The notes under the pieces were generated by a model. It did no database searches, was not told the DNA's origin, and worked only from the letters and a program-made list of their open reading frames with translations. This document shows positions 955 through 29,324 of a DNA stretch of 35,851 bases, piece by piece (the first letter of the stretch is position 1; each line of letters begins with the position of its first letter). The translations under genes and the position numbers were made by a program. This stretch comes from Saprospiraceae bacterium (lineage in GTDB: Bacteria > Bacteroidota > Bacteroidia > Chitinophagales > Saprospiraceae): assembly GCA_022841745.1 (NCBI GenBank), contig JALHQW010000075.1, positions 1-35,851 on the forward strand. The letters are read 5' to 3'.

Positions 955-963
955 GGAATAAGA

Positions 964-1050
964 AGGTGAGAGGGTGAGAAAGGTGAGAGAAGTGAGAGGG
1001 TGAGAGTCTCGCATCTCTTACGCTCTCACTTCTATCACCCTCTCACCCTC
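964..1050. repeat. Mirrored gtgagag repeat between two minus-strand genes
   Basis: The left arm (about 966-1006) is repeated gtgagag/ggtgag words and the right arm (about 1011-1050) is their reverse complement, so the transcript can fold into a long imperfect stem. It fills the whole 88-base gap. The TGA stop of the alpha/beta hydrolase (1043-1045) lies inside the right arm. Confidence 0.85.
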
Positions 1051-1855
1051 TAATTTCCGATAGAAACTCCCTGAACGCCTTGGCCGTCTCCCTGCTGGCC
1101 GAAAACATGCCCATGTGGCCAACAGTGGGGAAGACGTGGATGATGCCACGGCTGGGCAGGGTGGTCATGGCCATGCTCACATCGAGCGGAACAGCAGTAT
1201 CATGCTGGCCGATGAGCATGAGCACCGGGCAGTCGAGGTTGCGCAGCACCTGGGAACGGTCTTGGCGGTTGCGCATGGAATCGAGTGCAGCGATGATGGC
1301 TTCCGGCGAAAAATGAATGGCATTGTGAATCAAGCGGTTGACCTCCGATTGGTAGCCTTTCGAGAAATCATAGATGAAAAGCTGCGGGATGGTCTGGCGC
1401 ACGTAGATGACGTGGCCATTTGTCTTGATGAACTCGATGGCTTTGAGCCTTCCAGCATTTTTTTCTTCGGAGTCGGCAAAAGGGTGGGAATGGAACATGC
1501 AAAGCCCTGCTATTTTCTCGGCCCACTTCTCGGCATAAGCAAGGGCAACGTAGCCGCCCATGGAATGTCCCGTGAGGATAAATTTTTGAAGGTCCAAATG
1601 CTCCAAAACTGCGTCAACCGCCTCGGCCATGCCCGCCATGGTAAGGTTTTCCGTAAGCTCGGAACTACCAAAGCCGGGCAGGTCTATGCAAATATACCGT
1701 CGGTTGGGCAACAACGGGAGCCATTCTTCCCAAAGTCGGCTGTCCTCCAAAAAACCATGTATCAACACGACTGGCAGTTCATCTGCGTCCCGGCTCTTTC
1801 CCGGGTTGTTGTCAGAATAGGCGATTTGTTTTCCCTTGAATATTATTCGCTCCAT
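1043..1855 (-). CDS. Alpha/beta-fold hydrolase
   Basis: This 270-residue protein is a single-domain alpha/beta hydrolase, probably a cytoplasmic esterase or C-C bond hydrolase; substrate is not predictable. Visible elements are the oxyanion HG motif (VLIHGF, residues 30-35), the nucleophile elbow GHSMGG with Ser98, the acid Asp219 in IGQHD, and the catalytic His247 in VGHMGM. The triad order and length fit the family. There is no signal peptide. The ATG at 1855 sits a few residues before the first strand, and there is no better internal start. The last codons and stop fall inside the mirrored repeat at 964-1050. It shares its direction with the nucleotidyltransferase gene downstream, but the repeat hairpin between them may stop or process transcripts. 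Confidence 0.9.
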   Translation of the reverse strand: MERIIFKGKQIAYSDNNPGKSRDADELPVVLIHGFLEDSRLWEEWLPLLPNRRYICIDLPGFGSSELTENLTMAGMAEAVDAVLEHLDLQKFILTGHSMGGYVALAYAEKWAEKIAGLCMFHSHPFADSEEKNAGRLKAIEFIKTNGHVIYVRQTIPQLFIYDFSKGYQSEVNRLIHNAIHFSPEAIIAALDSMRNRQDRSQVLRNLDCPVLMLIGQHDTAVPLDVSMAMTTLPSRGIIHVFPTVGHMGMFSASRETAKAFREFLSEIRG

Positions 1856-3419: not shown

Positions 3420-3420
3420 A

Positions 3421-3545
3421 GCTGGGGGCTGGATGCTATGGATACTGGATACTGGACGAAACTACGGACTGTTTAACTAAAAGCAGCCCTTGACTAATCA
3501 ACTGCTGACTGACTGCTCACTGCCAACTGCCAAACTGCCCACTGT
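3421..3545 (+). repeat. Degenerate tandem repeat after the phosphatase gene
   Basis: Right after the TGA stop (3417-3419) the sequence becomes short-word repeats: ggatactgg copies at 3437-3455, then ctgactg and actgccaact words at 3490-3545. Arm mirroring is weak here. The actgccaactgcc words match those translated inside the nucleotidyltransferase at 341-467. Confidence 0.75.
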
Positions 3546-3609
3546 CAACGTTGGTCAGTTAAATAGGGGCAAGTATCGAAAGTCATTAACGCTGGGTGAA
3601 CCAATACCG

Positions 3610-3617
3610 TAGCTTTG
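3610..3617 (+). promoter_or_regulatory. Candidate Bacteroidota -7 box for the TM2 gene
   Basis: TAGCTTTG is an exact match to the Bacteroidota TAnnTTTG -7 element. A start about 7 bases downstream would give a leader of about 30 bases before the ATG at 3653. The -33 TTTG element is not clear at the expected spacing. Confidence 0.4.
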
Positions 3618-3652
3618 TGTTCAATTCGCATTTTGAATCTGAAGACCACTGA

Positions 3653-4429
3653 ATGAAAGATAAAAACGTAGCAGGAATTTTGGCCTTGTTCCTTGGTTGG
3701 GTGGGCATACACCGCTTCTATTTGGGGCAGGTGGGGTTGGGCATTTTGTACGCCATCTTCTTCTGGTTTCCGCTCGTCTGGTTGATTGCCTTCATTGATG
3801 CCATCGTGCTTTTTTCGATGGATCCCGATGTGTTTAACGTAAAATACAACAAGCAAACATGGCAGCAACGCCAGCAACAACCCGATTTTGAGCGTCAGCG
3901 GCGTCCAGATTTTGAGCGCCGGGAAATGCGCCCGCAGGCATCCCCTGCTGTTTCATCCCAGCGGAAGGCAACAGTTGACCGCCCAAACCCACACAAAACA
4001 ACGGGCCTCGAAAAATTTAAGGACTACGATTATTACGGTGCTATTGAAGATTTCAAAAAATCCCTCGAACTTGCGCCTCAGGACGTCGCTACGCATTTCA
4101 ACATCTCATGCGCTTACGCCTTGATTGAGGACAAAGAGAAAGCTTTCAAGCACCTTGATAAGGCAGTTTCCCTTGGCTTCATAGATTTTCAAAAAATAAA
4201 GGAGCACCACGCACTGGCTTACTTGCGCATCCAAAAAGAATTTGAACAGTTCGAGAAGAACGGGTTCCGATTACCACCTGTTTCTACTTCCAAAACCGAT
4301 GAAGACAATGTGCTTGCAGCGCAGCCCGACCTGCTCGACAGGTTGAAAAAACTGGCTGAGATGCGGGAACATGGCCTGCTCACGCAGCAAGAATACGATG
4401 ACCAACGGCAACGGCTGGTGGGAGGTTAG
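3653..4429 (+). CDS. TM2 domain / TPR-like / SHOCT membrane protein
   Basis: This 258-residue protein begins with a TM2 domain (about 1-65): LFLGWVGIHRFYLGQVGLG, then a second hydrophobic helix (FFWFPLVWLIAFIDAIVLF). It continues with a polar Gln/Arg-rich linker (about 68-115) and a TPR-like helical region (about 118-205; YYGAIEDFKKSLELAP, HFNISCAYALIEDKEKAFKHLDKA). It ends in a SHOCT-type helical hairpin (about 225-256; LLDRLKKLAEMREHGLLTQQEYDDQ). TM2 proteins are inner-membrane proteins of uncertain function; the TPR part probably binds partners and SHOCT hairpins are usually oligomerisation modules. The ATG at 3653 starts directly on the TM2 motif. It lies between a phosphatase and a CBS protein, which suggests signalling or envelope sensing, but that is inference. 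A mirrored repeat begins at its stop codon. Confidence 0.85.
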   Translation: MKDKNVAGILALFLGWVGIHRFYLGQVGLGILYAIFFWFPLVWLIAFIDAIVLFSMDPDVFNVKYNKQTWQQRQQQPDFERQRRPDFERREMRPQASPAVSSQRKATVDRPNPHKTTGLEKFKDYDYYGAIEDFKKSLELAPQDVATHFNISCAYALIEDKEKAFKHLDKAVSLGFIDFQKIKEHHALAYLRIQKEFEQFEKNGFRLPPVSTSKTDEDNVLAAQPDLLDRLKKLAEMREHGLLTQQEYDDQRQRLVGG

Positions 4430-4499
4430 AATTGTTGGAATTGCTGTATTGTAAGATTGATTTCTTCTATCAATACAACAATTCAACAATTCAGCAATC
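4430..4499 (+). repeat. Mirrored aattgttgg repeat after the TM2 gene
   Basis: The left arm (aattgttggaattgctgtattg) starts at the base after the TAG stop and is mirrored by the right arm (caatacaacaattcaacaattc...) at about 4470-4497, giving an imperfect stem-loop with a loop around 4458-4465. It could end or stabilise the upstream transcript. The rest of the gap up to 4615 is AT-rich with no recognised gene. Confidence 0.8.
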
Positions 4500-5275: not shown

Positions 5276-5346
5276 TACGATTGCGGATTTGAGGTGCTGC
5301 AAAGGATTTCTTTTCAAGGGGATTTGGCCTTTAATGCAGGTCTTGT

Positions 5347-5392
5347 AAACAAGAGAGGGACGGAGCTTTGTAGCTCCGTCCCTCTCTTGTTT
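5347..5392. terminator. Perfect 21-bp hairpin between convergent genes
   Basis: Bases 5347-5367 pair without mismatch to 5372-5392 around a 4-nt loop (ttgt), with A-rich and T-rich flanks on the two sides, so it can act as an intrinsic terminator in both directions. It lies between the convergent ends of the CBS gene (5275) and rnc (5456). The length and perfection of the stem and its gggacggagc core suggest it may also be a mobile palindromic repeat. Confidence 0.8.
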
Positions 5393-5400
5393 TTGCTGTA

Positions 5401-5452
5401 CCCCCAATCCGAAATTCTTTGTCATTCCCGAAGGGAACCTAATTCCGAATTC
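5401..5452. repeat. Interspersed repeat, copy 1
   Basis: The segment cccccaatccgaaattcttt... through cattcccgaagggaacct is nearly identical to 29269-29320 upstream of the RND pump gene. It contains a small ttccc/gggaa hairpin. It sits just downstream of the rnc stop codon (minus strand). Confidence 0.75.
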
Positions 5453-5455
5453 GAA

Positions 5456-7221: not shown

Positions 7222-8133
7222 ATGCAAAGACGCAGTTTTTTGAAAAACAGCCTACTCACCACGGCGGCAGTGGCAGCCGGCGCTTCGGTAGCCAATGCCA
7301 GCGGAGACCACCCCGCTGCCCGGAAGTTCAAGATGAAATATGCCCCGCACTTCGGCATGTTCGAGCAGTCGGCGGGCAAAGACCTGATTGACCAACTAAA
7401 GTTCATGGCTGACCAGGGCTTCACGGCCATGGAAGACAACGGCATGATGGGTCGCACCCCAGAGATGCAGTCGAAAATCGGCGAGACAATGGCCAAACTC
7501 GGTATGACGATGGGCGTGTTCGTGGTATCCTACGACAATTGGCCGCTATCCACCTCGCTCACCAGCGGCGACAAGGAGTGGCGGGACAAGTTTGTCAAGG
7601 CCTGCCACGGCGCCGTCGAAACAGCCAAGCGGGTGAACGCCAAATGGATGACCGTCGTGCCCGGCAACTTCGACCGCCGCCTGCCGCTGGGCATCCAGAC
7701 CGCACACGTGGTGGAGTCGTTGCGCAGGGGCGCAGAAATCTTCGAACCACACGGCCTCGTGATGGTGCTGGAGCCGCTGAGCGACACCCCCGACCTCTTC
7801 ATGCGCTACTCCGACCAGACCTACCTGCTCTGCAAGGCCGTCAACTCGCCTTCCTGCAAAATCCTGTTCGACATGTGGCACATGCAGCGCAACGAAGGCC
7901 GTATGACCGTGAACATGGATCTCTGTTGGGACGAAATCGCCTATTTCCAAATTGGCGACGAGCCGGGCCGCAACGAACCGACCACGGGCGAAGTGAACTA
8001 CAAGAACCTCTTCAAGCACATCCACGACAAGGGCTTCACGGGCATCCTCGGCATGGAGCATGGCAATTCCAGCAAAGGCAAGGAAGGGGAAATGGCGGTG
8101 ATAAGGGCGTATGAGGAGGTGGATTCTTTTTAG
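7222..8133 (+). CDS. Exported hydroxypyruvate isomerase-like TIM-barrel protein
   Basis: This 303-residue protein belongs to the sugar-phosphate isomerase/epimerase-like TIM-barrel group, closest in feel to hydroxypyruvate isomerase (Hyi). The N-terminus RRSFLKNSLLTTAAVAAG fits a twin-arginine signal peptide (about 1-27), so it is probably exported folded. The likely metal and catalytic residues are Glu184 (VLEPL), Asp217 and His220 (LFDMWHMQ), Gln243 (YFQIGD) and Glu279 (LGMEHGNS), in the order expected for the fold. The ATG at 7222 begins the Tat motif. The downstream ROK kinase gene is co-directional, 71 bases away across a mirrored repeat, and the pair resembles a carbohydrate-utilisation unit. 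The substrate may not be hydroxypyruvate, since many secreted homologues act on other keto-sugars. Confidence 0.88.
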   Translation: MQRRSFLKNSLLTTAAVAAGASVANASGDHPAARKFKMKYAPHFGMFEQSAGKDLIDQLKFMADQGFTAMEDNGMMGRTPEMQSKIGETMAKLGMTMGVFVVSYDNWPLSTSLTSGDKEWRDKFVKACHGAVETAKRVNAKWMTVVPGNFDRRLPLGIQTAHVVESLRRGAEIFEPHGLVMVLEPLSDTPDLFMRYSDQTYLLCKAVNSPSCKILFDMWHMQRNEGRMTVNMDLCWDEIAYFQIGDEPGRNEPTTGEVNYKNLFKHIHDKGFTGILGMEHGNSSKGKEGEMAVIRAYEEVDSF

Positions 8134-8201
8134 GCTATTGGCTATTTGCTATTGGCTGTTAGCCGATGGCCAACAGCCAACAGCCAACAGCCAATAGCCT
8201 G
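8134..8201 (+). repeat. Mirrored ggctattggc repeat between isomerase and ROK genes
   Basis: Directly after the TAG stop, ggctattggctatttgctattggctg words are mirrored by ccaacagccaacagccaacagccaatagcc, forming a long imperfect stem. It fills nearly the whole gap and ends 3 bases before the ROK start. An in-frame ATG inside it (8166) is rejected as the ROK start because it would encode only repeat sequence. Confidence 0.85.
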
Positions 8202-8204
8202 AAA

Positions 8205-9113
8205 ATGTACAGCATCGGTATAGACATCGGCGGCACGAACATCAAGGCCATCGTAGTGGATGAGCAGGGCAACCGCATCCACCAGGCAACGGCCCCCACG
8301 GGGCAGCACAATCGCCCCGAGGATGAGCAGCGTTGGAAGGGCGCAGTGCGTGACGTTTTCATCAATTTGAAAAAGGAGTTCGGCAAAGAAGTGAAGGCCG
8401 TTGGCCTCTCTGCGCCCGGCATCGCCAATGCCGACAATTCTGCCATCCACACCATGCCCGGCAGGCTTTGGGGCTTGGAGCATTTCAACTGGTCGGAGTT
8501 CTTCGGCGAGCGGGTCTGGGTGCTGAACGATGCCCATGCCGCCCTCATGGCCGAGGCCCGTTTTGGCGCAGCCAAAGGGAGGAAACATGCCGTGCTGCTG
8601 ACGCTTGGCACAGGCGTAGGCGGGGGCATCCTCATCAACGGCGAATTGTACCAGGGCATGGGCCAAGTGGCGGGCCACCTAGGTCATTTCTCCATCAACG
8701 CCACCGATGCCAAACTTGATTCAACTGGAAGCCCTGGCAGCTTGGAGGACGCTTTCGGCGACGAGACCGTGCCGCACCGCTCGCATGGCCGCTTCCGCTC
8801 CACGCTGGAAGTGGTGCAGGCCTACCAGCGGGGCGACCATTTCGCCACCTGGCTCTGGCTAGACGCCGTTCGCAAATTGGCAGTTGCCATCTCGACCATC
8901 GGCAATGTGTTCTCTCCAGAAGTGGTGGTACTCGGCGGCGGCATCACCAAGGCCGACGATGCACTGTTCAAGCCCTTGGCCGATTTCGTGGAACTCTACG
9001 AGTGGCGGCCCGGCGGTAAGCAGGTGACGATTTTGAAGGCACATTTCACCGAGTTTGCGGGGGCGGTGGGGGCGGCGGGGTTTGCTTGGCAGATGACAAA
9101 TATTGTGCGTTGA
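8205..9113 (+). CDS. ROK-family sugar kinase, divergent
   Basis: This 302-residue protein has the actin-like ATPase fold of ROK kinases. It shows phosphate 1 IDIGGTNIKA (6-15), the catalytic-base region LNDAHAALMAEARFG with Asp109, and LTLGTGVGGGILING (133-147). It lacks the DNA-binding domain of ROK repressors, so it is probably a cytoplasmic hexose or amino-sugar kinase. Two hallmark sites differ. The usual GE(I/L)GH reads GHLGH (157-161), replacing the sugar-contacting Glu by His158. The CxCGxxGC zinc motif reads DSTGSPGS (172-179), keeping the glycines but none of the cysteines. It may bind a different substrate. The ATG at 8205 starts directly on the family motif. It follows the isomerase gene across a repeat hairpin. 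Confidence 0.88.
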   Translation: MYSIGIDIGGTNIKAIVVDEQGNRIHQATAPTGQHNRPEDEQRWKGAVRDVFINLKKEFGKEVKAVGLSAPGIANADNSAIHTMPGRLWGLEHFNWSEFFGERVWVLNDAHAALMAEARFGAAKGRKHAVLLTLGTGVGGGILINGELYQGMGQVAGHLGHFSINATDAKLDSTGSPGSLEDAFGDETVPHRSHGRFRSTLEVVQAYQRGDHFATWLWLDAVRKLAVAISTIGNVFSPEVVVLGGGITKADDALFKPLADFVELYEWRPGGKQVTILKAHFTEFAGAVGAAGFAWQMTNIVR

Positions 9114-12374: not shown

Positions 12375-12675
12375 GGTGTTGCAGTTGATAAAGCTGCCAA
12401 GATAGAATCAAGTGGGAAAAAAAGGCGCATGATTATGTACAATGTTTCGTGAAGTTTTCGGGTTTTCGGGTTCTAAGGTTGCGGCACAGTAGCCGTTTTT
12501 GAAAAGATAGGTTGCTTTTCCAACCTTGTCAAAAATGTTTTACAGTTAGGTTTTGCCCCAAATCCCGAAAACCATAGAACCTTAAAACTTCACGAACCAT
12601 TGATGTAAATCCTCATCCTTTATTTTTTGTATTCATTTGCCTTAACAAGATTAGTGAACCTCACCCGCATTAGCC
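12375..12675. other. Intergenic region upstream of the acylase gene
   Basis: This 301-base gap between two minus-strand genes is dominated by the inverted repeat at 12441-12605. The acylase promoter should lie in the 66 bases between the element and the start, or inside the element. No gene is seen. Confidence 0.4.
12441..12605. repeat. Family-B inverted repeat element, copy 1
   Basis: The left arm (12441-12480, ttcgtgaagttttcggg...) and right arm (about 12561-12605, ...cttaaaacttcacgaaccattgat) are degenerate inverted copies around an AT-rich centre with internal gaaaagg/ccttttc-like pairing. The right-arm core ttcacgaaccattgat also occurs at about 15813-15828 as ctcacgaaccattgat, which defines an interspersed family. 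Confidence 0.75.
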
Positions 12676-14934
12676 CTACCTCACCACCAACCGCTCCGTC
12701 CAAGCCAGGTATCCATCGCTCAACCGCAGGTAGTACAAGCCAGCGGGCGCCCCACTTGGCAATTGGAGGGGATGCGTGGCCATGCCCGGTTCCATCGCTT
12801 TTTCTTCGTAAAAAATGACCTGCCCAAGGGCATTTCGCCACTCAATGCTTAGCAGCCTTGGCGTGTAGGAAATGGCATCAAGGTACAGGCTCCCAGTAGT
12901 GGGGTTCGGATAGATTTTCACAGGGCTGCCGAGCAGTTCCATGGCTTGGCTGAAAAGGAACGGCGGACGGTTCAGCAGGAAATGCTCCAATTTTTCGATG
13001 CCTTTTTCCCAATCGTCCATGCCCTTGGGGAAATGCCAACGACGTACATGCCGGGGCATTTCTTTGGACAGTTCCTCGGTCATTTCATGCAGCAAGGGCA
13101 GGCTCCTTTTGGGCGACATGGTCGTCTGAAGAAAGTGGCGCAACCGCTCGTGGAAACGGCGGCGGAAAGGCTCGTTGTCCAGCATCTTCCTCAGCAAGAG
13201 GAATGACTTTTCACGGCTTTCCCAGTCCGTCAGGTGATGGCGCTGCTCCGCAAAATTGAAGGAAAGCCCCGTGTAGTTGGAAGCCTTCATGCAGCCGTCG
13301 AGGTCGTAGGCAATCCATCGCCATTTCGAGCCAGGCTGGTCGGTTTTCCAGAACTTCACGTTGTTGTTGGGCCAGTCGGCATTGGCAAAGGCGGTTTGCA
13401 ACACAAAATAATCCATGAAATTCTCGATGTCAATCAATGCTTCCGCCTTTGCAAAATGACTGGGGTTGTTCAGGTCGTGGTTGTTGAAAAAATCAAGTAA
13501 CGATGCATAATAAGCAGGGTCGCCGTTTTCTGCGTAGCTGTCCCAGTTGATGTGGGAAGTGATTTCCTCGTCGCCCACCCCGGCTACCTGTGCCATGAAA
13601 TATTGGTCTATGAACTCCCTAAAGCTATGGATTCCCCAATACTCCCCATTCACCAGCACCACGACGAATTGCCGCCGGGCATGGTCGGCAGCCACCTCGC
13701 CCAGCATCAGCTCATGGCAAAAATCATCGGTAAAGCCCACCTGCGACCAATCCCCCGAAAGGGTGCGTAGGGCCAGTCGTTTAAAATCCGAATGGTGGTC
13801 TTCGCCAAAAAACGGATGCTCGAAACGGGAAGGGCCGTATTCGCTCCGGGCATAGAGTTTCAGGGTCTTTTGTGGATAGGCACGGGTGGTGAAGCCGCTC
13901 AGTCGGATGCCGATGTCCTGTGCCAGCAGCAGGTTGCCCGTTTCATCGAAATACTCAAAATGTGCGGGGCGCTCCCAAGCTGCTCCGTACTGCTGATAGT
14001 TTTCGTGAAGCCCTTTGTGATAGATGCCAGTTTCCGCATCGAAAAGATGTGGCTTGGAAGTGGCCAAACTGACGACGGGAAGGCTATAGGGAAACCCACC
14101 TCCCCCCACGAAAAAAGTCCCTGTCAGCACCCTGCTATCTGGCTGACCATTGCGGAAGGCCCTTGCCCTGACCACATGCTCGATCGGCACTTCGCCCGAA
14201 GGGGCCTTCCAATTGTCGGCGGTAGGAATTTGCGCCAATTGCGCAGCGGGCAGATTGGCGGCGTTGAGGGGGATTGGGGCGCTCCACTTGGTATGGTACG
14301 GCTGCGGTTCGCTGCCATCGAGCGTAAAGTGGATTTCGGCATCGGGCCTATCGGCCCAAACGATGAGTTCCAGCCCGCCCGGATGGTGACCGGGTGGCTT
14401 CGAGAACTGAAGGGTGGTCGAAAAATGCGGCTGGTGACCATCGGGCAGATTAGGGTCGCCGGGTGTAGGGGCGGCAAAAATGGCAAAGCTGGCACTGCCA
14501 TCTGGTAGCCGCCCAAAACTTTGGTCGGCATCCAAGGCTGGGAATTCAACTTGGTCGGCCAAGCTGCCATTTGGATTGGATAGCAGCAATGTTTCGCCTT
14601 CTTTGTCTAACTTGAAATTGGTGTGCCAATAGCTGCCGTCGAAGAAGTCCAGCCCCGATGCGATGACGAGTAGGTGGCCCTTGGGCGGTAGGCTGGCTGC
14701 GGGCAGTGTCCACCGTTGGGGCTGTGCTGCATCGTCGGACAGGTGCCAGGATAGCAGGTCAATGGCTTGGTCGGAGGCGTTGTAGAGTTCAATCCAATCG
14801 TGCGGCTGGCCAGTGCCGTCAAAGAAGCTGGATTCGTTGTCTGCCATGACTTCGTTGATGGCTACTTGCGATACTGCTGCATTTGGCAGCATTGGCCAAA
14901 GGAAGGCCCAAGCCAAGAGTAGGCGAATGTTCAT
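12676..14934 (-). CDS. Lamin-tail / CotH kinase-like T9SS surface protein (CotH-1)
   Basis: This 752-residue secreted protein has a signal peptide (1-22), a lamin-tail domain (about 24-140; VAINEVMADNESSFFDG, HDWIELYN), a chitobiase-like Ig module (about 185-275; AEIHFTLDGSEPQ), a CotH spore-coat-kinase domain (about 285-660) and a T9SS sorting domain (about 675-752; IYPNPTTG, GLYYLRLSDG). The CotH part shows GIRLSGFTTRAYPQKTLKL with Lys356, VLVNGEYWGIHSFRE, Asp520 in NADWPNNN and the DLD triplet at 544-546. CotH domains are atypical kinases that phosphorylate secreted proteins, so this could be a surface-anchored kinase; activity is inferred. Its ATG overlaps the end of the upstream barrel-like gene by 4 bases, so the two are translationally coupled. 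Family-B repeats flank the pair. Confidence 0.88.
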   Translation of the reverse strand: MNIRLLLAWAFLWPMLPNAAVSQVAINEVMADNESSFFDGTGQPHDWIELYNASDQAIDLLSWHLSDDAAQPQRWTLPAASLPPKGHLLVIASGLDFFDGSYWHTNFKLDKEGETLLLSNPNGSLADQVEFPALDADQSFGRLPDGSASFAIFAAPTPGDPNLPDGHQPHFSTTLQFSKPPGHHPGGLELIVWADRPDAEIHFTLDGSEPQPYHTKWSAPIPLNAANLPAAQLAQIPTADNWKAPSGEVPIEHVVRARAFRNGQPDSRVLTGTFFVGGGGFPYSLPVVSLATSKPHLFDAETGIYHKGLHENYQQYGAAWERPAHFEYFDETGNLLLAQDIGIRLSGFTTRAYPQKTLKLYARSEYGPSRFEHPFFGEDHHSDFKRLALRTLSGDWSQVGFTDDFCHELMLGEVAADHARRQFVVVLVNGEYWGIHSFREFIDQYFMAQVAGVGDEEITSHINWDSYAENGDPAYYASLLDFFNNHDLNNPSHFAKAEALIDIENFMDYFVLQTAFANADWPNNNVKFWKTDQPGSKWRWIAYDLDGCMKASNYTGLSFNFAEQRHHLTDWESREKSFLLLRKMLDNEPFRRRFHERLRHFLQTTMSPKRSLPLLHEMTEELSKEMPRHVRRWHFPKGMDDWEKGIEKLEHFLLNRPPFLFSQAMELLGSPVKIYPNPTTGSLYLDAISYTPRLLSIEWRNALGQVIFYEEKAMEPGMATHPLQLPSGAPAGLYYLRLSDGYLAWTERLVVR

Positions 14935-18033: not shown

Positions 18034-18056
18034 TTACATTAGCGGCGCAAAATTTG

Positions 18057-18092
18057 AAAAGGGTTGATAATTCGCAGATTATCAACCCTTTT
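18057..18092 (+). terminator. Intrinsic terminator after the outer-membrane protein gene
   Basis: Bases 18057-18071 (aaaagggttgataat) pair perfectly with 18078-18092 around a 6-nt loop, and the stem runs into a T-run (ccctttttgg). It begins 23 bases after the stop at 18033. Confidence 0.85.
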
Positions 18093-18175
18093 TGGTGCGT
18101 TAGCATATCGGGTTTGCAGTTGCAAACGATGAGGCTGCCAAATGCTCTATTTGCTCGAAACTCGAAACTGAAAGA

Positions 18176-19210: not shown

Positions 19211-19318
19211 TTGATAATCAAAATCTTATTTGATTTATGATGTATGAAATATGATTTAAGATGTATGATTTGGAACGCCGCTGTTAATCATACATCTTAA
19301 ATCGTACCTCATAGTTCT
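19211..19318 (+). repeat. Mirrored atgtatgattt repeat between the HlyD and TolC genes
   Basis: Beginning right after the TGA stop, gatttatgatgtatgaaatatgatttaagatgtatgattt words are mirrored by aatcatacatcttaaatcgtacctcat at 19287-19313 around the loop ggaacgccgctgtt. The arms pair well and would fold in the transcript. Confidence 0.85.
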
Positions 19319-19349
19319 TAAATCAGTATAATGTGTGAGCGGCCTTAAA

Positions 19350-20746: not shown

Positions 20747-23314
20747 ATGACCAAAGTTTTATACCCAATTGGCCTAATGGCCCTGTTTGTTTTTTTGGCA
20801 TCCGCACTGCCCGCACAGGTGGTGCTGAACGAGTATTCGGCAGCCAATCATTCCACTACCCCCGACAACTACGGCAAATATGAGGACTGGCTGGAGCTTT
20901 ACAACACCGACTCCGTCAACGCAGTGGACCTTTCTGGCTGGCAACTCACCGACAACCCCGACAGGCTTGACAAATGGGCCATCCCACAGGGCGTCAGCAT
21001 CTCACCAAGGGGCTTCCTGACCGTTTGGCTGAGCGGCCGTGATGAAGGAAGCGGGGGACATTTGCATGCAAACTTCAAAATCACCCAGACCAAGACCGAA
21101 CCGGAGGAATTCGTACTCAGTAATCCTGCCGGTATTATTGCGGACAGCAAGAAAGTGCGCAAGACACAGATTAGCCAGGCTGTGGGCCGCAAGCAGAACG
21201 GTGGTGACGATTGGGGCGTGTCCACTTTGACAACCCCGGGCAGTTCCAACAACAATATTTATTACTACGAGGACTATGTTTCCGAGCCAGATTTCAGCCA
21301 ATCGGCAGGCTTCTACCAAGACTCAGTAAAGGTTGAAATCACCTGCGAGGACAGCACCGCCACCATCCGCTATACGACCAACGGCAACCTGCCAACGGCC
21401 AGTTCGGCTATTTATAATGGTCCGATTACCATCAACCAAACAACGGTGCTGAAGGCGATTGCCTTTCCGAACAACTTCGACCAGTTGCCGAGCTTTTTGG
21501 AGTTTGGCACTTATTTCATCAATGTGGACCACACGCTGCCTGTTGCTTCTGCTTCGGGCACACAACTGCTCCAATTGGCAAATGGCAACCAAGGCCTGCG
21601 GCCATTTGGCTCCTTCGAACTTTTCAATGTTGAAAAAGAAAGGGTATCCAAGGTAACTGGTGAACTCAATAGCCACGGCCAAGACTCCTGGGTGAACGAC
21701 CAGCGCAGCATTGACTGGGTGAGCCGTGATGAAATGGGCGAAGACAATGCTGTCGAAGAAGTGCTTTACCCAGGTCTGACCGAAAGGGACGAATTCCAGC
21801 GAATCATTTTGCGAGCCTCCGGTGACGACAATTACCCGGGGGGCAGCGATTACACAGAGAACGGCCAACCTGTGAGCGCCCACGTGCGTGATGCCTATAT
21901 CCACAACCTCGCCACCCGTGGCGATATGAGCGTGGATGTGCGCTACAGTTCCAAGGCTATCGTTTATCTAAATGGCGAATACTGGGGCGTCTATGACTTC
22001 CGATCCCTGCCCGACGACCACGACCACACCGCTGACGAGTACAACCAGGACAAGTATGACCTTGAGTACCTGCTCACTTGGGGCGATAGCTGGGCGCAGT
22101 ACGATGCCAATGGCGAGGCGTTCCAGAATTGGGAGAACCTCTATAACTTCATCGCAAACAACAACATGGGCGACCCCAACAACTATGCCTACGTGGAGAG
22201 CCAACTTGACGTGAAAAGTCTTTGCGATTATTTCATCGCCAACTCCGTCACCGTTGCCAGCGACTGGCTGAACTGGAACACGGGTTGGTGGCGGGGCCTC
22301 AACCCCGAAGGCACCCACCAAAAATGGGGCTATATCCTTTGGGACCTCGATGCTACTTTTGCCTACTATATCAACTATACGGGCATCCCCGACACCAGTG
22401 CCACCGCCCTGCCCTGCAACCCAGAAGTGATAGACCTCACTTTCTGGGATGACCCTCAACCGCAGCGCCACCTCAACATCCTGAACAAGTTGAAGAACGA
22501 AAGCCCCACTTTCCGGCAGTTCTATGTGACCCGTCAGGCCGACCTTTTCAAAACGGTGTTCAGTTGCGACAACATGCTGAGCTACCTCGATGAAATCATC
22601 GCCATTATTGCGCCCGAGATGCCTGCACACATAGCCCGCTGGGGTGGAACCGAACAGCAATGGAAGGACAACGTGGAGCGGCTTCGGTTTTTCGTGGAGC
22701 GGCGCTGCGCACACCTCAATGCCGGTTCTGGCCTCAACGACTGCTACCAGACCTCCGGCCCCTTTGATGTGGTGCTGATGACCGACCCTCCAGGTGCAGG
22801 TGTTATTCATGCCAACTCCTTGACTTACAATAATTTACCTGCTAACACCCCCTTCTTTGGCGGCATCGAAACGCTGCTGAACGTGGAGCCTGCCGGGCCT
22901 GGCTTTAACTTCAGTTTCTGGAAAACGAACCACCACAGCTTTGCGGACAGCAGCTTGGCACAGAACGCCGTCATGCTCGCTCAGGGAGATACCATCACGG
23001 CTGTTTTCAATTTCATCCCTTCCGGCAATGATGAGGTAGTGGCCGGCCAGTTCGATGCCAAGGTGCTGCCATCGGTATTCACGCAACAGTTCACGGTGAG
23101 CTACCATCTGGACGAGACCTCGGTCGTTTCCATGCGCCTGCTCGATGTGGCTGGCCGTGAGGTCGCCCCACTGTTCTCCAACTTGCGCATGAACGCTGGC
23201 GACCACCTCTTCGGCTTCGACAGTGCTGGCAAGGGAATCGCCCCCGGCATTTACTTCCTGAACATCAATGTGGATGGGGTGCAGCAGACGCTGAAGGTGG
23301 TGAAAGCGGAGTAG
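20747..23314 (+). CDS. Lamin-tail / CotH kinase-like T9SS surface protein (CotH-2)
   Basis: This 855-residue secreted protein has a signal peptide (1-24), a lamin-tail domain (about 25-150; VVLNEYSAANHS, EDWLELYN), a chitobiase-like module (about 185-260; ATIRYTTNGNLPTASSAIYN), a CotH domain (about 275-700), a beta-sandwich segment (about 705-765) and a T9SS sorting domain (about 770-855; GIAPGIYFLNI). CotH elements include VYLNGEYWGVYDFR, Asp506 in ASDWLNWN and the DLD triplet 533-535. The position of the conserved Lys in CotH-1 (PQK) and CotH-3 (PKK) is Arg320 (DQR) here, so nucleotide binding may be altered. The ATG at 20747 begins the signal peptide. It is convergent with the TonB receptor gene across a compound hairpin. 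Confidence 0.88.
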   Translation: MTKVLYPIGLMALFVFLASALPAQVVLNEYSAANHSTTPDNYGKYEDWLELYNTDSVNAVDLSGWQLTDNPDRLDKWAIPQGVSISPRGFLTVWLSGRDEGSGGHLHANFKITQTKTEPEEFVLSNPAGIIADSKKVRKTQISQAVGRKQNGGDDWGVSTLTTPGSSNNNIYYYEDYVSEPDFSQSAGFYQDSVKVEITCEDSTATIRYTTNGNLPTASSAIYNGPITINQTTVLKAIAFPNNFDQLPSFLEFGTYFINVDHTLPVASASGTQLLQLANGNQGLRPFGSFELFNVEKERVSKVTGELNSHGQDSWVNDQRSIDWVSRDEMGEDNAVEEVLYPGLTERDEFQRIILRASGDDNYPGGSDYTENGQPVSAHVRDAYIHNLATRGDMSVDVRYSSKAIVYLNGEYWGVYDFRSLPDDHDHTADEYNQDKYDLEYLLTWGDSWAQYDANGEAFQNWENLYNFIANNNMGDPNNYAYVESQLDVKSLCDYFIANSVTVASDWLNWNTGWWRGLNPEGTHQKWGYILWDLDATFAYYINYTGIPDTSATALPCNPEVIDLTFWDDPQPQRHLNILNKLKNESPTFRQFYVTRQADLFKTVFSCDNMLSYLDEIIAIIAPEMPAHIARWGGTEQQWKDNVERLRFFVERRCAHLNAGSGLNDCYQTSGPFDVVLMTDPPGAGVIHANSLTYNNLPANTPFFGGIETLLNVEPAGPGFNFSFWKTNHHSFADSSLAQNAVMLAQGDTITAVFNFIPSGNDEVVAGQFDAKVLPSVFTQQFTVSYHLDETSVVSMRLLDVAGREVAPLFSNLRMNAGDHLFGFDSAGKGIAPGIYFLNINVDGVQQTLKVVKAE

Positions 23315-23456
23315 ATTTACGATTTAGCGATTTACGATTGGGGGCAATGGGTTCTCCAAATAGAAAGGGGTTCGTGGCAGTTTGTCCAAGAACCCCTTTC
23401 TCATTTCGGCTGGGCCCCCAATCGTAAATCGTAAATCCCAAAATCGTAAATCGTCA
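23315..23456. repeat. Mirrored cgatttacgatt repeat filling a convergent gap
   Basis: The left arm (atttacgatttagcgatttacgattggggg) starts at the base after the CotH-2 TAG stop. The right arm (cccccaatcgtaaatcgtaaatcccaaaatcgtaaatcg) runs into the TGA stop of the TonB gene (23454-23456, minus). The arms enclose the terminator hairpin at 23362-23401, making a nested cruciform that touches both stop codons. Confidence 0.85.
23362..23401. terminator. Bidirectional terminator hairpin
   Basis: Bases 23362-23373 (agaaaggggttc) pair perfectly with 23390-23401, with a short inner tgg/cca extension. It lies midway between the convergent CotH-2 and TonB receptor genes and is nested inside the mirrored repeat. 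Confidence 0.75.
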
Positions 23457-25901
23457 AAACTCTCCCCGCCAAGTCAAAATCGGAATCAAGCCCAATTGGC
23501 GCTTCTCCAAGACCTTGCCCTGCACGGTGTCATAGTAGTGGTACTGGATGTTCTTACGGCTCGTAAGATTCTGAATATCAAGCGATAGCATGGAGTTCTT
23601 GCCCGTTTTGTTCCACTTCTTGTAAAGGCGGAGGTCTATGCGGAAATAGCTGTCCAATTTCAGAATATTTGCATCGGTGAGGTTGAAAACGGTGTAGCCT
23701 TGCTCTGCAGAAGTTGATTCCAGGATCGGCGTTTCCTTGAACCCACCCAGCCAAACGACCCGGCTACTGATGCCGTTGATGATGGTCTTGCCATTTTTTT
23801 GCTTCAAAAACTCCCGCCCGCCTGTCAGGTTCATCGTGTAACCCCCATCGAAGCGGGTACTGCGCCAACTGTGTTGGTTCTTGGGAGCCTTGTCCGTGTA
23901 TTCCGAACGGTAAAGTGACCCGGCCAGCAGGAAGAAAAAGCGGTCGGTCAGGTATTTCTGTAGGGAAAGGTCAATGCCGTAATTGCGGCCCTGGCCAATG
24001 CTATTGAAATCGTCTGGGACAATGCCGACGGTGGTGTTAAAATAGGCTTGCGAGAAATCCATCAAGTTCAGCAGGGAAATCGTGCCGTTCGGTGTTTCGT
24101 AAACGGGCTGGTCGAGCAAGTGCTGGTAGTAAGCCTCTGCTTTGAATATCAATGACTTGCCAAGGCTGTTTTGGTATCCAGCCACGATATGATGTGCCCG
24201 AGGTGCAGAAGGGAATTCGGTGGCGAATCCAGATTTGAGGGCATTCAACTGTAAGGGCAACAGCTGACTGTGCAGGCCATAGGACAAGCTCAAACGCCCC
24301 TGCCCAAGTTGGTATCCCAAACTAAGACGAGGCTCAGGCATCACTTCATTCCTGAGCACGGTATAAATGCTCGCTCTTATCCCTGCAATCAGTTCCAGCC
24401 TCCCAAAGTCCATTTGCCAATCGAAATGCGGCTGTACCACCCAGCCCTTGGCAGTGCCGCCAGTTTGCCATTGCAAGGTCGGCCTGATGAACAACGATTC
24501 GAACTCGCCCCGGTAGTTCATGGCCTCCACGCCTAGTTTTATACGGTTCGAGCCGTCAATTTTTTGGGTAAAAACGGAGGAAAAGCTCGCCTTCCTTTCC
24601 TGCATCAAATCATCTTCCCAGCGAGCGCCATTGGCCAGAAAGTCCGCTGTGCGCTCATGTTCCAGCGCCGACAAAATGGCCACCGTCCGCCACACGCTCC
24701 GCTTGCCCAGCGGCTTCACATAGGTAAGCCCCGCAGCCCCCATTTTCGATTGAAAATCAATGTTGAAAAGCTCTTTTTCTATCGTCGCCGAATCGGTGGG
24801 GGAGCGGTAAATCGTGCTGCTCTTGCCACCCATGCCAAAAAGGGTAAGGCTGCCCCCTTTTTTGCCCGGCAGGGCGACATGAAAAGCCACATCCTGAAAA
24901 GCCGTTTCCTCGTCCCCAAAATCGGCACCCATCGCCGTCAACAGCCCCGTGAACGAGTAGCGGTAATTTGCAAGGAAGGATGGTGATCGGTGACTGGTGA
25001 CTGGTGACTGGTGATTCGTGATTCGTGATTGGCTATCCGATTGGCCCTGACTAGGGACTGCGGACTGCGGACTTTGGACTCTCAAAGGCCCTTCCACAGC
25101 TGCTTCGATGCCAATGAAGCCTGCTTGCGCAATGAGTTCGTGGCGTTGGTCATTGCCCTTTCGGAAACTCATGTCCATGATGCCACCGAGGGCGTTGCCG
25201 TACTGTGCTGGGAAAGCCCCCGTCAACAGGGAACTGCCGCCCAGCAACTGGGCGCTGAGGATGTTCACCCCGCCACCTGCCCCTGTGGGGCGATCGCCGA
25301 AGGTGCCGCCATTGGCGGTGTGGTTGGGGTTCACGATTTCCACGCCTTCGAGCCGCCATTGCAGGGCATTGGGCGAGTTGCCCCGCACGGAGATGATATT
25401 AGTGCCATCGTTGTCGCCCGCCACACCGGGGTAGGCCATCGCCAAGCGGGCCGGGTCGAAATTGGTGCCGGGGAAACGGAACTGCTCCTCGACGCTGAAG
25501 TTCAGGCGGTTGACGTTTGAAATCGAAGCGTTGTTTTGGGAGGTCGCTTTTACCACGATTGTCTGCAAGCTGTCGGCCCGCTCCTGTAGCTGCACGTTTA
25601 GCACGGTCTCTCGTCCTGATTCAATGAGGATTTCGGTGATGGTGAGCGGCTCGTGGCCGATATAGGAAACCTTGACTTGGTAGCGCCCTACGGGCAATTT
25701 TTCTATCAAATAACTTCCTGATACAGAAGCGGTTGTGCCAACGATTGGGTTCGTGTTGGGCAACGAGATCGTCGCTCCGACCAATGGCTCCCCCGTGTCC
25801 GCATCCGTCACCGTGCCACGGAGCGTTTGCCCCGGCGATTGCGCCAGCACAAGTGTTGCGAAGCAAAAAAAGGAAAGCAGTAGCGGCAAGATTTTTTTCA
25901 T
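23454..25901 (-). CDS. TonB-dependent outer-membrane receptor with carboxypeptidase-regulatory-like domain
   Basis: This 815-residue protein is a TonB-linked outer-membrane transporter. It has a signal peptide (1-21), a CarboxypepD-regulatory-like domain (about 25-105; LRGTVTDADTGEPLVGATI, GSYLIEKLPVGRYQVKVSYIGHE), a plug (about 110-240; ISVRGNSPNALQWRLEGVEI, GGVNILSAQLLGGSSLLTGAF) and a 22-strand barrel to the C-terminus (ILTWRGEF). No SusD partner is adjacent, so it is probably not a SusCD pair; the ligand is unknown. The ATG at 25901 is chosen because the ten residues from an earlier start would precede the signal peptide. About residues 273-307 are repeat-encoded Ser/Gln/His/Arg-rich sequence, between strands reading IEAAVEGPL and FLANYRYSF. 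A hairpin terminator lies just upstream, so it has its own promoter or reads through. Confidence 0.92.
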   Translation of the reverse strand: MKKILPLLLSFFCFATLVLAQSPGQTLRGTVTDADTGEPLVGATISLPNTNPIVGTTASVSGSYLIEKLPVGRYQVKVSYIGHEPLTITEILIESGRETVLNVQLQERADSLQTIVVKATSQNNASISNVNRLNFSVEEQFRFPGTNFDPARLAMAYPGVAGDNDGTNIISVRGNSPNALQWRLEGVEIVNPNHTANGGTFGDRPTGAGGGVNILSAQLLGGSSLLTGAFPAQYGNALGGIMDMSFRKGNDQRHELIAQAGFIGIEAAVEGPLRVQSPQSAVPSQGQSDSQSRITNHQSPVTSHRSPSFLANYRYSFTGLLTAMGADFGDEETAFQDVAFHVALPGKKGGSLTLFGMGGKSSTIYRSPTDSATIEKELFNIDFQSKMGAAGLTYVKPLGKRSVWRTVAILSALEHERTADFLANGARWEDDLMQERKASFSSVFTQKIDGSNRIKLGVEAMNYRGEFESLFIRPTLQWQTGGTAKGWVVQPHFDWQMDFGRLELIAGIRASIYTVLRNEVMPEPRLSLGYQLGQGRLSLSYGLHSQLLPLQLNALKSGFATEFPSAPRAHHIVAGYQNSLGKSLIFKAEAYYQHLLDQPVYETPNGTISLLNLMDFSQAYFNTTVGIVPDDFNSIGQGRNYGIDLSLQKYLTDRFFFLLAGSLYRSEYTDKAPKNQHSWRSTRFDGGYTMNLTGGREFLKQKNGKTIINGISSRVVWLGGFKETPILESTSAEQGYTVFNLTDANILKLDSYFRIDLRLYKKWNKTGKNSMLSLDIQNLTSRKNIQYHYYDTVQGKVLEKRQLGLIPILTWRGEF
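24983..25083. repeat. Degenerate tandem repeat translated inside the TonB receptor
   Basis: Runs of gtgactg, gattcgt and gactgcg words (plus strand) are translated in frame on the minus strand as an SPQSA.../NHQSPVTSHRSPS stretch of about 34 residues. The flanking protein continues as normal barrel strands, so the repeat lies in a turn or loop. The word style matches the intergenic repeats. Confidence 0.85.
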
Positions 25902-25913
25902 AGCAATTGGCAT

Positions 25914-25957
25914 AAAAAGCAAAGGTGACACCTTCGATTGAAAGTGTCACCCTTGCT
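25914..25957 (-). terminator. Intrinsic terminator after the CDGSH gene
   Basis: On the minus strand a 14-bp stem with one mismatch (agcaagggtgacac / gtgtcacctttgct) is followed by TTTTT. It ends the CDGSH transcript and lies immediately upstream of the TonB receptor start at 25901. Confidence 0.75.
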
Positions 25958-26207: not shown

Positions 26208-26215
26208 TTTGATGT

Positions 26216-26348
26216 GATTTGTTTTTGCTACGCAAAAAGTGTTTTTTGACGCAGAAAGACACTGATTTTTATGATTGGTTATGATTTGTTTTTGCTGCGC
26301 AAAACTGTTTTTTGACGCAGAAAAACGCTGATTTTTATGATTGGTTAT
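26216..26348. repeat. Two-copy 66-67-bp tandem repeat
   Basis: Units 26216-26282 and 26283-26348 are nearly identical (gatttgtttttgct..gcgcaaaa..., gacgcagaaa..., ctgatttttatgattggttat), differing at a few bases and one indel. The pair lies between the end of CotH-3 and the start of the CDGSH gene, so it is in the CDGSH promoter or leader region. Confidence 0.9.
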
Positions 26349-29019: not shown

Positions 29020-29324
29020 AAAGAGAAATTAAGCCCCGAAAGTAGGAAACTGCGGGATTATGGGTAAAAAAATTCGGGTATGGTATGACCCTCGAAATGC
29101 CCTACCTTTTTGATGCCTATCTTATGCTATATGGTACAGCGAAAGCCACGACTGGAAAAATGAACCCCATTGATTTTCTGAAAAGCTAATTTCCTCCCCA
29201 GATACGAGGCTTTTGGCAACTATGTACTGGCGATTTTGTTTAAACCGCTTACTTTGCCCCTACCTTGACCCCCAATCCGAAATCCTTTGTCATTCCCGTA
29301 GGGAACCTAATCCGAAATCGCCAC
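29020..29324. other. Divergent intergenic region, Nudix and RND genes
   Basis: This 305-base gap should contain both promoters. TACTTTGC at 29250-29257 is a weak -7 candidate for the RND gene without a properly spaced -33 box. The interspersed repeat at 29269-29320 occupies the rest up to the RND start. No gene is seen. Confidence 0.4.
29269..29320. repeat. Interspersed repeat, copy 2
   Basis: The segment cccccaatccgaaatccttt... with cattcccgtagggaacctaat matches 5401-5452 closely. It ends 4 bases before the RND start codon, so it forms the 5' leader of that mRNA and could fold (ttccc/gggaa). Confidence 0.75.

What the first reader, a model, noticed from the sequence alone, without database searches (positions are those of the whole stretch)
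23312..23456. Mirrored short-word repeats that begin at stop codons
In this convergent gap both arms of a degenerate repeat touch a stop codon, one for each gene. The same architecture (a locus-specific short word repeated several times, then its reverse complement) begins within a few bases of the stop codon at 964-1050, 4430-4499, 8134-8201 and 19211-19318, and in weaker form at 3421-3545. The words differ from locus to locus, so shared layout rather than shared sequence defines the class. This is unlike a normal transposed repeat and suggests local growth of 3'-end hairpins, or an element that targets gene ends. They could act as terminators or mRNA 3' stabilisers.
Basis: seen in the sequence. 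Interest (0 to 1): 0.72.

Follow-up and report, generated by a model that had tools for sequence, protein, structure and literature searches.

The report
Short-word hairpins at gene ends
In these bacteria roughly one gene end in ten is followed, starting at the stop codon, by a long hairpin made of a short repeated DNA word and its mirror image; related species keep the layout at some genes while the word itself can change.

Summary
The observation largely holds. Five of six cited window sites are mirrored short-word arrays; 3421-3545 is not mirrored. In 32 sampled stretches of this genome (640 kb; relatives are Saprospiraceae) 50 'worded' hairpins occur, against 1 in five shuffled sets; by eye 15 of the 50 are other repeats. 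Restricted to the 36 periodic ones, 19 ends lie within 4 nt of a stop codon against 9.2 expected for random placement in the same gaps. Arcicella aurantiaca repeats this (16 against 6.6). Unworded inverted repeats do not (3 against 10.1).
Words are not locus-private: one arm family gives 116 matches in this genome, and nine copies share a core of about 55 nt. Orthologous gaps keep the same word, carry another, or lack the hairpin. At the target gap a sister species has related arms but an inverted spacer, a published signature of template switching.
Best reading: dispersed word-array hairpins, kept mirrored by template switching, that end at the coding boundary. A role as mRNA 3'-end structure is inferred, not shown. 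No T-run follows them, and 0 of 70 has a G3 quadruplex motif, unlike the similarly placed G-rich heptamers of Xanthomonas and Nostoc. New variant of a known kind.

The parts
23312..23314 (+). TAG stop codon of the left gene (20747-23314); its G is the first base of the left arm
23314..23339 (+). left arm, word GATTTAC
23362..23401 (.). inner terminator-like hairpin inside the word arms; the spacer that holds it is inverted in the G008 ortholog
23414..23454 (.). right arm, word AATCGTA (mirror of the left arm)
23454..23456 (-). TGA stop codon of the convergent right gene (23454-25931)
961..1006 (.). left arm, word GGTGAGAG
   Evidence: same word in the G011 and G001 orthologs
1015..1055 (.). 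right arm, CTCTCACC; contains the TGA stop of the minus-strand gene at 1043-1045
4429..4456 (.). left arm, word GAATTGTT, starting at the last base of the TAG stop
4466..4492 (.). right arm, AACAATTC
8127..8164 (.). left arm, word GGCTATT/GGCTGTT, containing the TAG stop at 8131-8133
8168..8205 (.). right arm, word GCCAACA
19226..19270 (.). left arm, word TGATGTA/GATTTAA, starting 15 nt after the stop
19286..19331 (.). right arm
3438..3456 (.). unmirrored array TGGATAC, G-rich left side of a mixed gap
3501..3549 (.). unmirrored array ACTGCCA, C-rich right side of the same gap

Best explanation
These are dispersed word-array hairpins that occupy the free space between a stop codon and the next constrained sequence. 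Shown: arrays of mostly 7-8-nt words, often in mirrored pairs, begin at the stop codon more than random placement gives; in 23 of 49 stop-adjacent cases the arm includes part of the stop codon; arm families recur at many loci; orthologous gaps keep the same word, carry another, or lack the hairpin; at the target locus the spacer has flipped between arms. Inferred: word arrays spread in trans to gene ends by an unidentified copying process; replication template switching between the arms keeps them mirrored and can flip the spacer; spread halts at the stop codon because coding sequence is under selection; the long stem right behind the stop codon acts as an mRNA 3'-end structure (exonuclease barrier, or a stop for ribosome and polymerase traffic between neighbouring genes). 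G-rich, C-poor 5' arms, which carry more stop triplets, fit a family-level filter: a hairpin at a gene end must supply or keep a stop codon.
For: Enrichment over shuffles: 50 worded hairpins against 1 in five shuffled sets. Ends within 4 nt of stops against random placement in the same gaps: all own 32 vs 14.8, unselected stretches 21 vs 10.2, Arcicella 18 vs 7.7, unworded inverted repeats 3 vs 10.1 (own) and 8 vs 4.7, p 0.10 (Arcicella); periodic subset 27 vs 12.6, 19 vs 9.2 and 16 vs 6.6. Pairing across the arms: 0.18-0.41 upstream of the stop codon, 0.41-0.51 on it, 0.53 at the next base, 0.63-0.71 at the following twelve. Convergent gaps filled from stop to stop: worded 8 of 13, strict 7 of 10, unworded 1 of 24. 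Trans copies: 116 matches of one arm family; core shared by nine copies; AAGGATTG words in 10 of 14 genus genomes. Orthologous gaps. Spacer inversion: score 43.5 inverted, 13.5 forward, at most 0.5 in 300 shuffles; arm homogenisation and spacer inversion are the signatures named in PMC8604942 (passages). 5' arm richer in G than C in 64 of 70, 5 reverse, 1 tie; Arcicella 28 to 6 of 35. Stop triplets 7.16 against 4.49 per 100 positions in 5' and 3' arms. Folding z below -5 in all 8 tested.
Against: No RNA 3'-end data were available, so function is inferred. No mover was identified. The own partner is the best-matching arm in only 5 of 15 loci of the GATTTAAG family and 1 of 5 of AGTTGGC, and by the best-pair measure within-locus similarity exceeds between-locus similarity in three of five families only. 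One spacer inversion was seen, and the G008 arms there fall below the word threshold (p 0.25). Canonical terminators are neither depleted nor enriched at worded stops. In many orthologous gaps the hairpin is absent. In Xanthomonas, transcripts started or stopped less often in repeats unable to form quadruplexes than in quadruplex-forming ones (PMC4692102), which speaks against layout alone being enough there. Genes were called by my own codon-usage script, and the word threshold was set while looking at the first 20 stretches; Arcicella is the independent set. 10 of 70 5' arms have no stop triplet in any frame of their first 36 nt.
Confidence: 0.47

Rival explanations
1. Selfish REPIN/MITE-like families moved by an unidentified transposase; they sit at stop codons only because insertions there do least harm. 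No host function.
For: Dispersed copies, arm pairs around variable spacers, a core in one family, uneven load of given words across the genus. Words with stop codons make an insertion at a gene end tolerable. Y1 transposases are present in 12 of 14 genus genomes.
Against: Y1 counts do not follow the load of the three words searched: G009 has 8 with few matches, G013 has 0 and G006 1 with many; but only three words were counted, and G010, with none of them, has a worded hairpin of another word in the 6.2 kb read. In G011 word-like arms (below threshold, p 0.17) stand on both sides of a terminator also present in the own genome and G006, which one insertion does not explain. No target duplication was noticed by eye in nine copies.
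Confidence: 0.33
2. Local growth at each gene end: slippage plus template switching on a seed hairpin creates a private word at each locus.
For: Spacer inversion; arrays end at the coding boundary.
Against: Same arms, and in one family the same core, at many loci and in three species; same words across the genus.
Confidence: 0.08
3. Ordinary intrinsic terminators whose stems happen to be repetitive.
For: They sit at gene ends, and some gaps hold a canonical terminator inside the arms.
Against: No T-run after worded hairpins: T fraction 0.247, 5 of 76 with 5 or more T in 8; T before (0.35) and A after (0.35) is the reverse of a terminator. Worded hairpins number 1 in five shuffled sets and 2 in a 643,587-bp control set, with 1 in its shuffled set.
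Confidence: 0.07
4. G-quadruplex repeats as proposed for Xanthomonas and Nostoc heptamers.
For: Same polarity and same stop-codon proximity (PMC4692102).
Against: 0 of 70 worded hairpins have a G3 quadruplex motif, 13 of 70 a G2 motif.
Confidence: 0.02

Closest known systems
Heptameric GGGNATC repeats of Xanthomonas and Nostoc (Rehm et al. 2015, PMC4692102)
   Same: Heptamer arrays, intergenic, G-rich on the coding strand within 50 bp of stop codons, some overlapping the stop, few between divergent genes; 70 and 75 inverted pairs in two Xanthomonas genomes; [quoted passage not shown]
   Different: One G-rich word type was studied, and it is explained by quadruplexes; few inverted pairs in Nostoc. 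Here many words coexist, 0 of 70 hairpins has a G3 quadruplex motif, mirrored pairs often fill convergent gaps, and words differ between some orthologous gaps.
TAACTGA direct repeats of Beggiatoaceae, cyanobacteria and some Bacteroidetes (MacGregor 2015, PMC4679880)
   Same: Heptamer arrays in gaps, dispersed, patchy across phyla; stop codons in one reading direction were already noted as limiting overlap with genes; some Microcystis sets lie between stop codons and one Flexibacter set right after a stop. The Arcicella genome is rich in the same heptamer.
   Different: Described mainly as direct repeats upstream of start codons, with one indirect repeat in the BOGUAY genome (abstract and sections 9, 10 read; the rest of the paper not read).
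REP/REPIN elements (PMC3116915 and PMC12306157, passages)
   Same: Short dispersed extragenic elements, inverted pairs around a variable spacer forming hairpins; in E. coli REPs fewer than 16 nt from a stop codon are reported to lower translation.
   Different: Arms here are tandem 7-8-nt words. The GTAG/CGTC tag was not looked for, and a link to Y1 transposases was not shown.
BrickBuilt MITE of Porphyromonas gingivalis (PMC4596501, passages)
   Same: A Bacteroidota element that combines inverted ends with an internal tandem repeat.
   Different: 23-nt unit, leader and tail, 49-591 nt from the nearest coding sequences, whereas these begin at the stop codon.
Template-switch mutations at quasipalindromes (PMC8604942 passages, PMC8794818 abstract)
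   Same: Arm homogenisation and spacer inversion.
   Different: A mutation process, not an element; it explains mirroring, not the spread of words.

Membership tests
Heptamer repeats at stop codons (Xanthomonas/Nostoc type) | tandem 7-nt words, intergenic, next to stop codons, G-rich on the coding strand | tested here: met
   106 period-7 arrays in 158 kb intergenic, 19 in 678 kb coding (all own stretches); unpaired arrays near stops G-rich reading away in 29 of 33, C-rich in 3
Heptamer repeats at stop codons (Xanthomonas/Nostoc type) | G3-tract words able to form quadruplexes | tested here: not met
   0 of 70
REPIN | inverted pair of a dispersed short unit with variable spacer | tested here: met
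REPIN | association with a Y1/RAYT transposase | tested here: inconclusive
   Y1 genes in 12 of 14 genomes; counts do not follow the load of three searched words, but other words were not counted and neighbourhoods were not examined
REPIN | GTAG or CGTC tag at the palindrome foot | not tested
   -
MITE | terminal inverted repeats plus dispersed copies | tested here: met
   GATTTAAG family
MITE | target site duplication and empty sites | tested here: inconclusive
   none noticed by eye in nine copies; no close strain pair was available
Intrinsic terminator | stem followed by a T-run on the coding strand | tested here: not met
   T fraction 0.247 in the 8 nt after, 5 of 76 with 5 or more T
Template-switch quasipalindrome | spacer inversion between orthologs | tested here: met
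   one locus
Template-switch quasipalindrome | arm homogenisation within loci | tested here: inconclusive
   best-pair measure higher within loci in three of five families, equal in one, lower in one; own partner best in 5/15, 1/5, 3/6, 1/3, 4/6; detection favours similar arms

The most novel reading that the evidence does not exclude
A phylum-crossing class of gene-end hairpins in which only the layout is under selection: mirrored, G-rich-first, word-repeated, anchored at the stop codon. The vocabulary is arbitrary, spreads between loci without a dedicated transposase, is kept mirrored by template switching, and is swapped in orthologous gaps. The quadruplex heptamers of Xanthomonas and Nostoc and the TAACTGA repeats would be special cases.
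Probability: 0.25. Interest if true: 0.8.

Novelty: new variant of a known kind. Interest (0 to 1): 0.62.

Why it matters
Heptamer repeats in bacterial gaps have been described before, with quadruplexes or regulator binding proposed. A genome with many different words in one layout separates layout from sequence: here neither a quadruplex nor one binding motif can be the common cause. It makes the question testable in a cultured, named species (Arcicella aurantiaca), and offers a natural case in which template switching may act on many gene ends of one genome.

Tried and rejected
Common core over all word families: the core of the GATTTAAG family scored above all 30 shuffles in only 3 of 56 other-family spacers. 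A second scan found 9 hits in 55 other-family gaps, 0.67 per kb against 0.26 shuffled, 0.19 in gaps without inverted repeats and 0.49 in gaps with unworded ones. That is weak, and I do not claim a shared core. Model R1 gave strong matches only in the own genome, G006 and G011.

Y1 transposase as the mover: no support from counts, but the load was measured by three words only, so this is open. XisH as a correlate, suggested by a remark in PMC4679880 and by a XisH gene in the G006 version of the target gap: G010 has 9 with none of the three words, G013 and G004 have 0.

G skew as a general 3' flank bias: rejected, since gaps without inverted repeats have G 0.211 and C 0.210 after the stop, worded gaps 0.266 and 0.136 (unworded inverted repeats 0.248 and 0.190). 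Terminator replacement: canonical terminators are not depleted at worded stops. Stop codon usage is similar at worded edges (TGA 25, TAA 14, TAG 10) and elsewhere (TGA 185, TAA 138, TAG 50). Quadruplexes: rejected. Rfam: only a tRNA in the window at gathering threshold.

An early phylum scan for AAGGATTG words found them only in the own genome of 296, but that draw held no other genus member; the genus scan found them in 10 of 14.

I also added, which repeats the placement test without the non-periodic repeats.
Full report
WHAT WAS CHECKED. The window is a whole contig (G000:C75) of an 8.43-Mb draft genome of 178 contigs. The finding cites six sites. Five are mirrored short-word arrays. Site 3421-3545 has a G-rich word on its left and a different C-rich word on its right and is not mirrored. 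In the target gap the arms reach from the TAG of the left gene to next to the TGA of the right gene, and a terminator-like hairpin lies inside. All eight stretches folded as RNA had z below -5, and none of 200 shuffles of each did as well.

CHANCE. Gapped inverted repeats were sought in gaps of 25-900 nt between genes called by my own codon-usage script; longer and shorter gaps were dropped. An arm counts as worded if its repeated 5-mers exceed those of shuffled arms (p at most 0.02 in either arm). In 32 stretches not chosen by hits (640,000 bp, 335 gaps, 77,259 bp) there were 144 inverted repeats against 32 in five shuffled sets together, and 50 worded ones against 1. The threshold is loose: by eye 15 of the 50 are other repeats, not short-word arrays. 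Period-7 tandem arrays number 106 in 158 kb of intergenic and 19 in 678 kb of coding sequence over all own stretches.

PLACEMENT. Over all own-genome stretches (window, the 32, and 8 stretches chosen because they held matches) 70 worded hairpins were found. Hairpin ends lie within 10 nt of 49 of the 76 stop codons and 20 of the 64 start codons that bound their gaps. In same-direction gaps 36 lie nearer the stop and 14 nearer the start; in the 32 unselected stretches 24 and 9. An earlier count on 21 own stretches plus 13 sister stretches gave 39 of 59 stops and 9 of 49 starts. Long hairpins fill short gaps by necessity, so each was placed at random in its own gap 10,000 times. Within 4 nt of a stop: 32 observed, 14.8 expected (p about 1e-4); unselected stretches 21 and 10.2; unworded inverted repeats 3 and 10.1. 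Within 10 nt the excess is smaller (49 against 37.4), and at start codons there is none (20 against 21.6). Only hairpins with a period of 6-11: 27 against 12.6, unselected 19 against 9.2; worded but not periodic: 5 against 2.3. Of 13 worded hairpins between convergent genes 8 fill the gap from stop to stop (strict set 7 of 10); of 24 unworded, one does. Pairing between the arms is 0.18-0.41 upstream of the stop codon, 0.41-0.51 on it, 0.53 at the next base and 0.63-0.71 at the following twelve; hairpins were selected with ends in this zone, so the step is partly built in. In 23 of 49 stop-adjacent cases the arm includes at least one base of the stop codon, as in T|GATTGCG or T|AGTTGGC. Of 322 stop ends beside examined gaps in the unselected stretches, 33 have a worded hairpin within 10 nt.

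REPLICATE AND CONTROL. Arcicella aurantiaca DSM 22214 (G353, reached through L083), 20 stretches of 20 kb, at a slightly stricter score: 35 worded hairpins and none in one shuffled set; ends within 10 nt of 31 of 36 stops and 7 of 34 starts; 21 against 3 in same-direction gaps; 5' arm richer in G in 28 and in C in 6. Within 4 nt of a stop 18 against 7.7 expected, periodic ones 16 against 6.6; unworded inverted repeats there 8 against 4.7, p 0.10. Of 247 stop ends 31 carry one within 10 nt. A control of 643,587 bp from named, mostly Flavobacteriaceae loci (13 loci numbers of other groups left out, and loci under 15 kb) had 2 worded hairpins and 1 in the shuffled set. In 14 genomes of the same family (289,619 bp; loci under 4 kb dropped) there were 7 worded hairpins, of which one in G027 lies stop to stop; in 9 genomes of the order (133,076 bp) none.

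POLARITY. The 5' arm has more G than C in 64 of 70 worded hairpins (5 the reverse, 1 tie) and in 66 of 104 unworded ones (12 ties). Unpaired arrays follow the rule: read away from a stop, G-rich in 29 of 33 and C-rich in 3; away from a start, 22 and 7 of 29. Gaps without inverted repeats show no skew after the stop. Stop triplets are commoner in 5' arms (7.16 per 100) than in 3' arms (4.49), with more in the 5' arm in 41 hairpins and fewer in 15; unworded hairpins give 4.90 and 3.97, 55 and 25. In the first 36 nt of 5' arms, 10 of 70 carry no stop triplet in any frame and 9 carry one in all three; read as reverse complement, 24 and 4. I read the skew as a filter: stop codons contain no C, and a hairpin that starts inside a gene's last codon must supply or keep a stop. 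MacGregor made the matching point for TAACTGA.

ORIGIN. The words are not private. The query L043:4950-5130 gives 116 matches in this genome (both arms of a copy count), 80 in G011, 42 in G006, 14 in G004, 13 in G007 and 0-4 in the other nine. Nine full copies read from three species share a core of about 55 nt between the arms, detected strongly only in those three genomes; other copies of the arm family have short unrelated spacers. The target gap has matches, mostly to its word arm, in 9 of 14 genus genomes, AAGGATTG words occur in 10 of 14. So purely local growth is rejected, and some copying between loci must occur.

TURNOVER. Orthologous gaps were compared in three to ten genomes each. 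Gap after 8133: GGCTATT here; AAGGATTG in G006; GAGAATG in G008; AATTGAAA types in G004 and G013, and in G001 below the word threshold; ordinary hairpins in G011; no inverted repeat of score 13 in G012 (which has AAGGATTG words on one side only), G007 and G002. Gap after 4429: GAATTGTT here, AGTTGGC in G011, GGTTTCA in G001, a sub-threshold hairpin in G012, none in G008, G004 and G007. Gap 955-1042: the same GGTGAGAG word here, in G011 and in G001; none in G004, G007 and G008. Gap 3420-3652: none here; sub-threshold hairpins (p 0.05) in G011 and G001; none in three others. Gap 19211-19334: related words here and in G011, a sub-threshold one in G001. Target gap: same word here and in G011; G008 keeps recognisable arms below the word threshold; G006 keeps the left arm and has a XisH-bearing insert on the right (XisH match at G006:C213:8185-8571). 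Gap 5276-5455 has no worded hairpin in any of five genomes. Thus the layout recurs in the same slot, sometimes with the old word, sometimes with a new one, and often it is absent.

MIRRORING. Between the arms of the target gap, the G008 spacer matches the window spacer in inverted orientation (score 43.5, 62 identities and 12 mismatches) far better than forward (13.5); 300 shuffles reach 0.5. Spacer inversion together with arm homogenisation is what template switching between inverted repeats produces (PMC8604942, passages; PMC8794818, abstract). This is one case. In G011 word-like arms (below threshold, p 0.17) stand on both sides of a terminator that is also present in the own genome and in G006 (gap 18034-18175); a single hairpin insertion does not make that arrangement. 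Homogenisation within loci is seen in three of five families by the best-pair measure.

FUNCTION. The stem starts at the stop codon and would form on transcripts that leave the gene. Canonical termination on the arms is unlikely: no T-run follows, and T before with A after is the reverse of a terminator. Canonical terminators occur about as often with as without them (6 of 49, 5 of 26 with a worded hairpin elsewhere in the gap, 50 of 308; gaps of 60 nt or more). The remaining plausible roles are an exonuclease barrier at the mRNA 3' end, a brake on ribosomes at the stop as reported for E. [quoted passage not shown] This step is inference.

COMPARISON. The nearest published case is the G-rich heptamer of Xanthomonas and Nostoc (PMC4692102; abstract, passages and sections 10, 13 and 15 read): same polarity, same closeness to stop codons including overlap, inverted pairs in Xanthomonas, prominent repeats at different genes in sister species. 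That work explains them as quadruplexes, and found transcripts starting or stopping more often in quadruplex-forming repeats than in the others, which is a point against layout alone. Here 0 of 70 hairpins have a G3 motif, so the layout does not need quadruplexes. I found no description of many-word mirrored stop-to-stop hairpins in eight paper searches, of which I saw the listings; subscription papers are mostly not held there.

VERDICT. The class is real and replicated in a second species. New variant of a known kind, with an open copying mechanism and an untested function.

Noticed in passing
window 338-445: Two 54-nt repeats made of AAGGATTG and ACTGCCA words lie inside the minus-strand ORF 121-954, read in the C-rich direction; the G011 ortholog region also carries AAGGATTG words (G011:C428:5334-5360).
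   Followed up: partly
G006:C213:8185-8571 (target gap of G006, L272): A XisH gene, followed by what by eye looks like XisI, sits in the G006 version of the target gap where the right arm would be.
   Followed up: partly
L234 about 11700-12850 (G000:C53:48693-49898): Head-to-tail array with eight core copies of the element, mostly spaced about 140 nt, interrupted by a run of N.
   Followed up: no
L035 2187-2274; also L036, L039, L040, L045: A second, wordless palindrome family (GGAGGCGGGGTTATCAAACCCCGC and mirror, near-perfect) dispersed in gaps; looks like an ordinary MITE or REP.
   Followed up: no
window 5401-5452 and 29268-29320: A repeat of about 50 nt, also at G000:C11 and C74, 90-94% identical.
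   Followed up: no
window 26215-26348: 66-nt direct duplication, 92% matches, next to a called gene start.
   Followed up: no
L222, L223, L033 and window 12440-12602: Dispersed element of about 165 nt with arms like CAATGGTTCGTGAAGTTTTAAGGTTCTATGG; copies in L222, L223 and L033 passed the word threshold.
   Followed up: no
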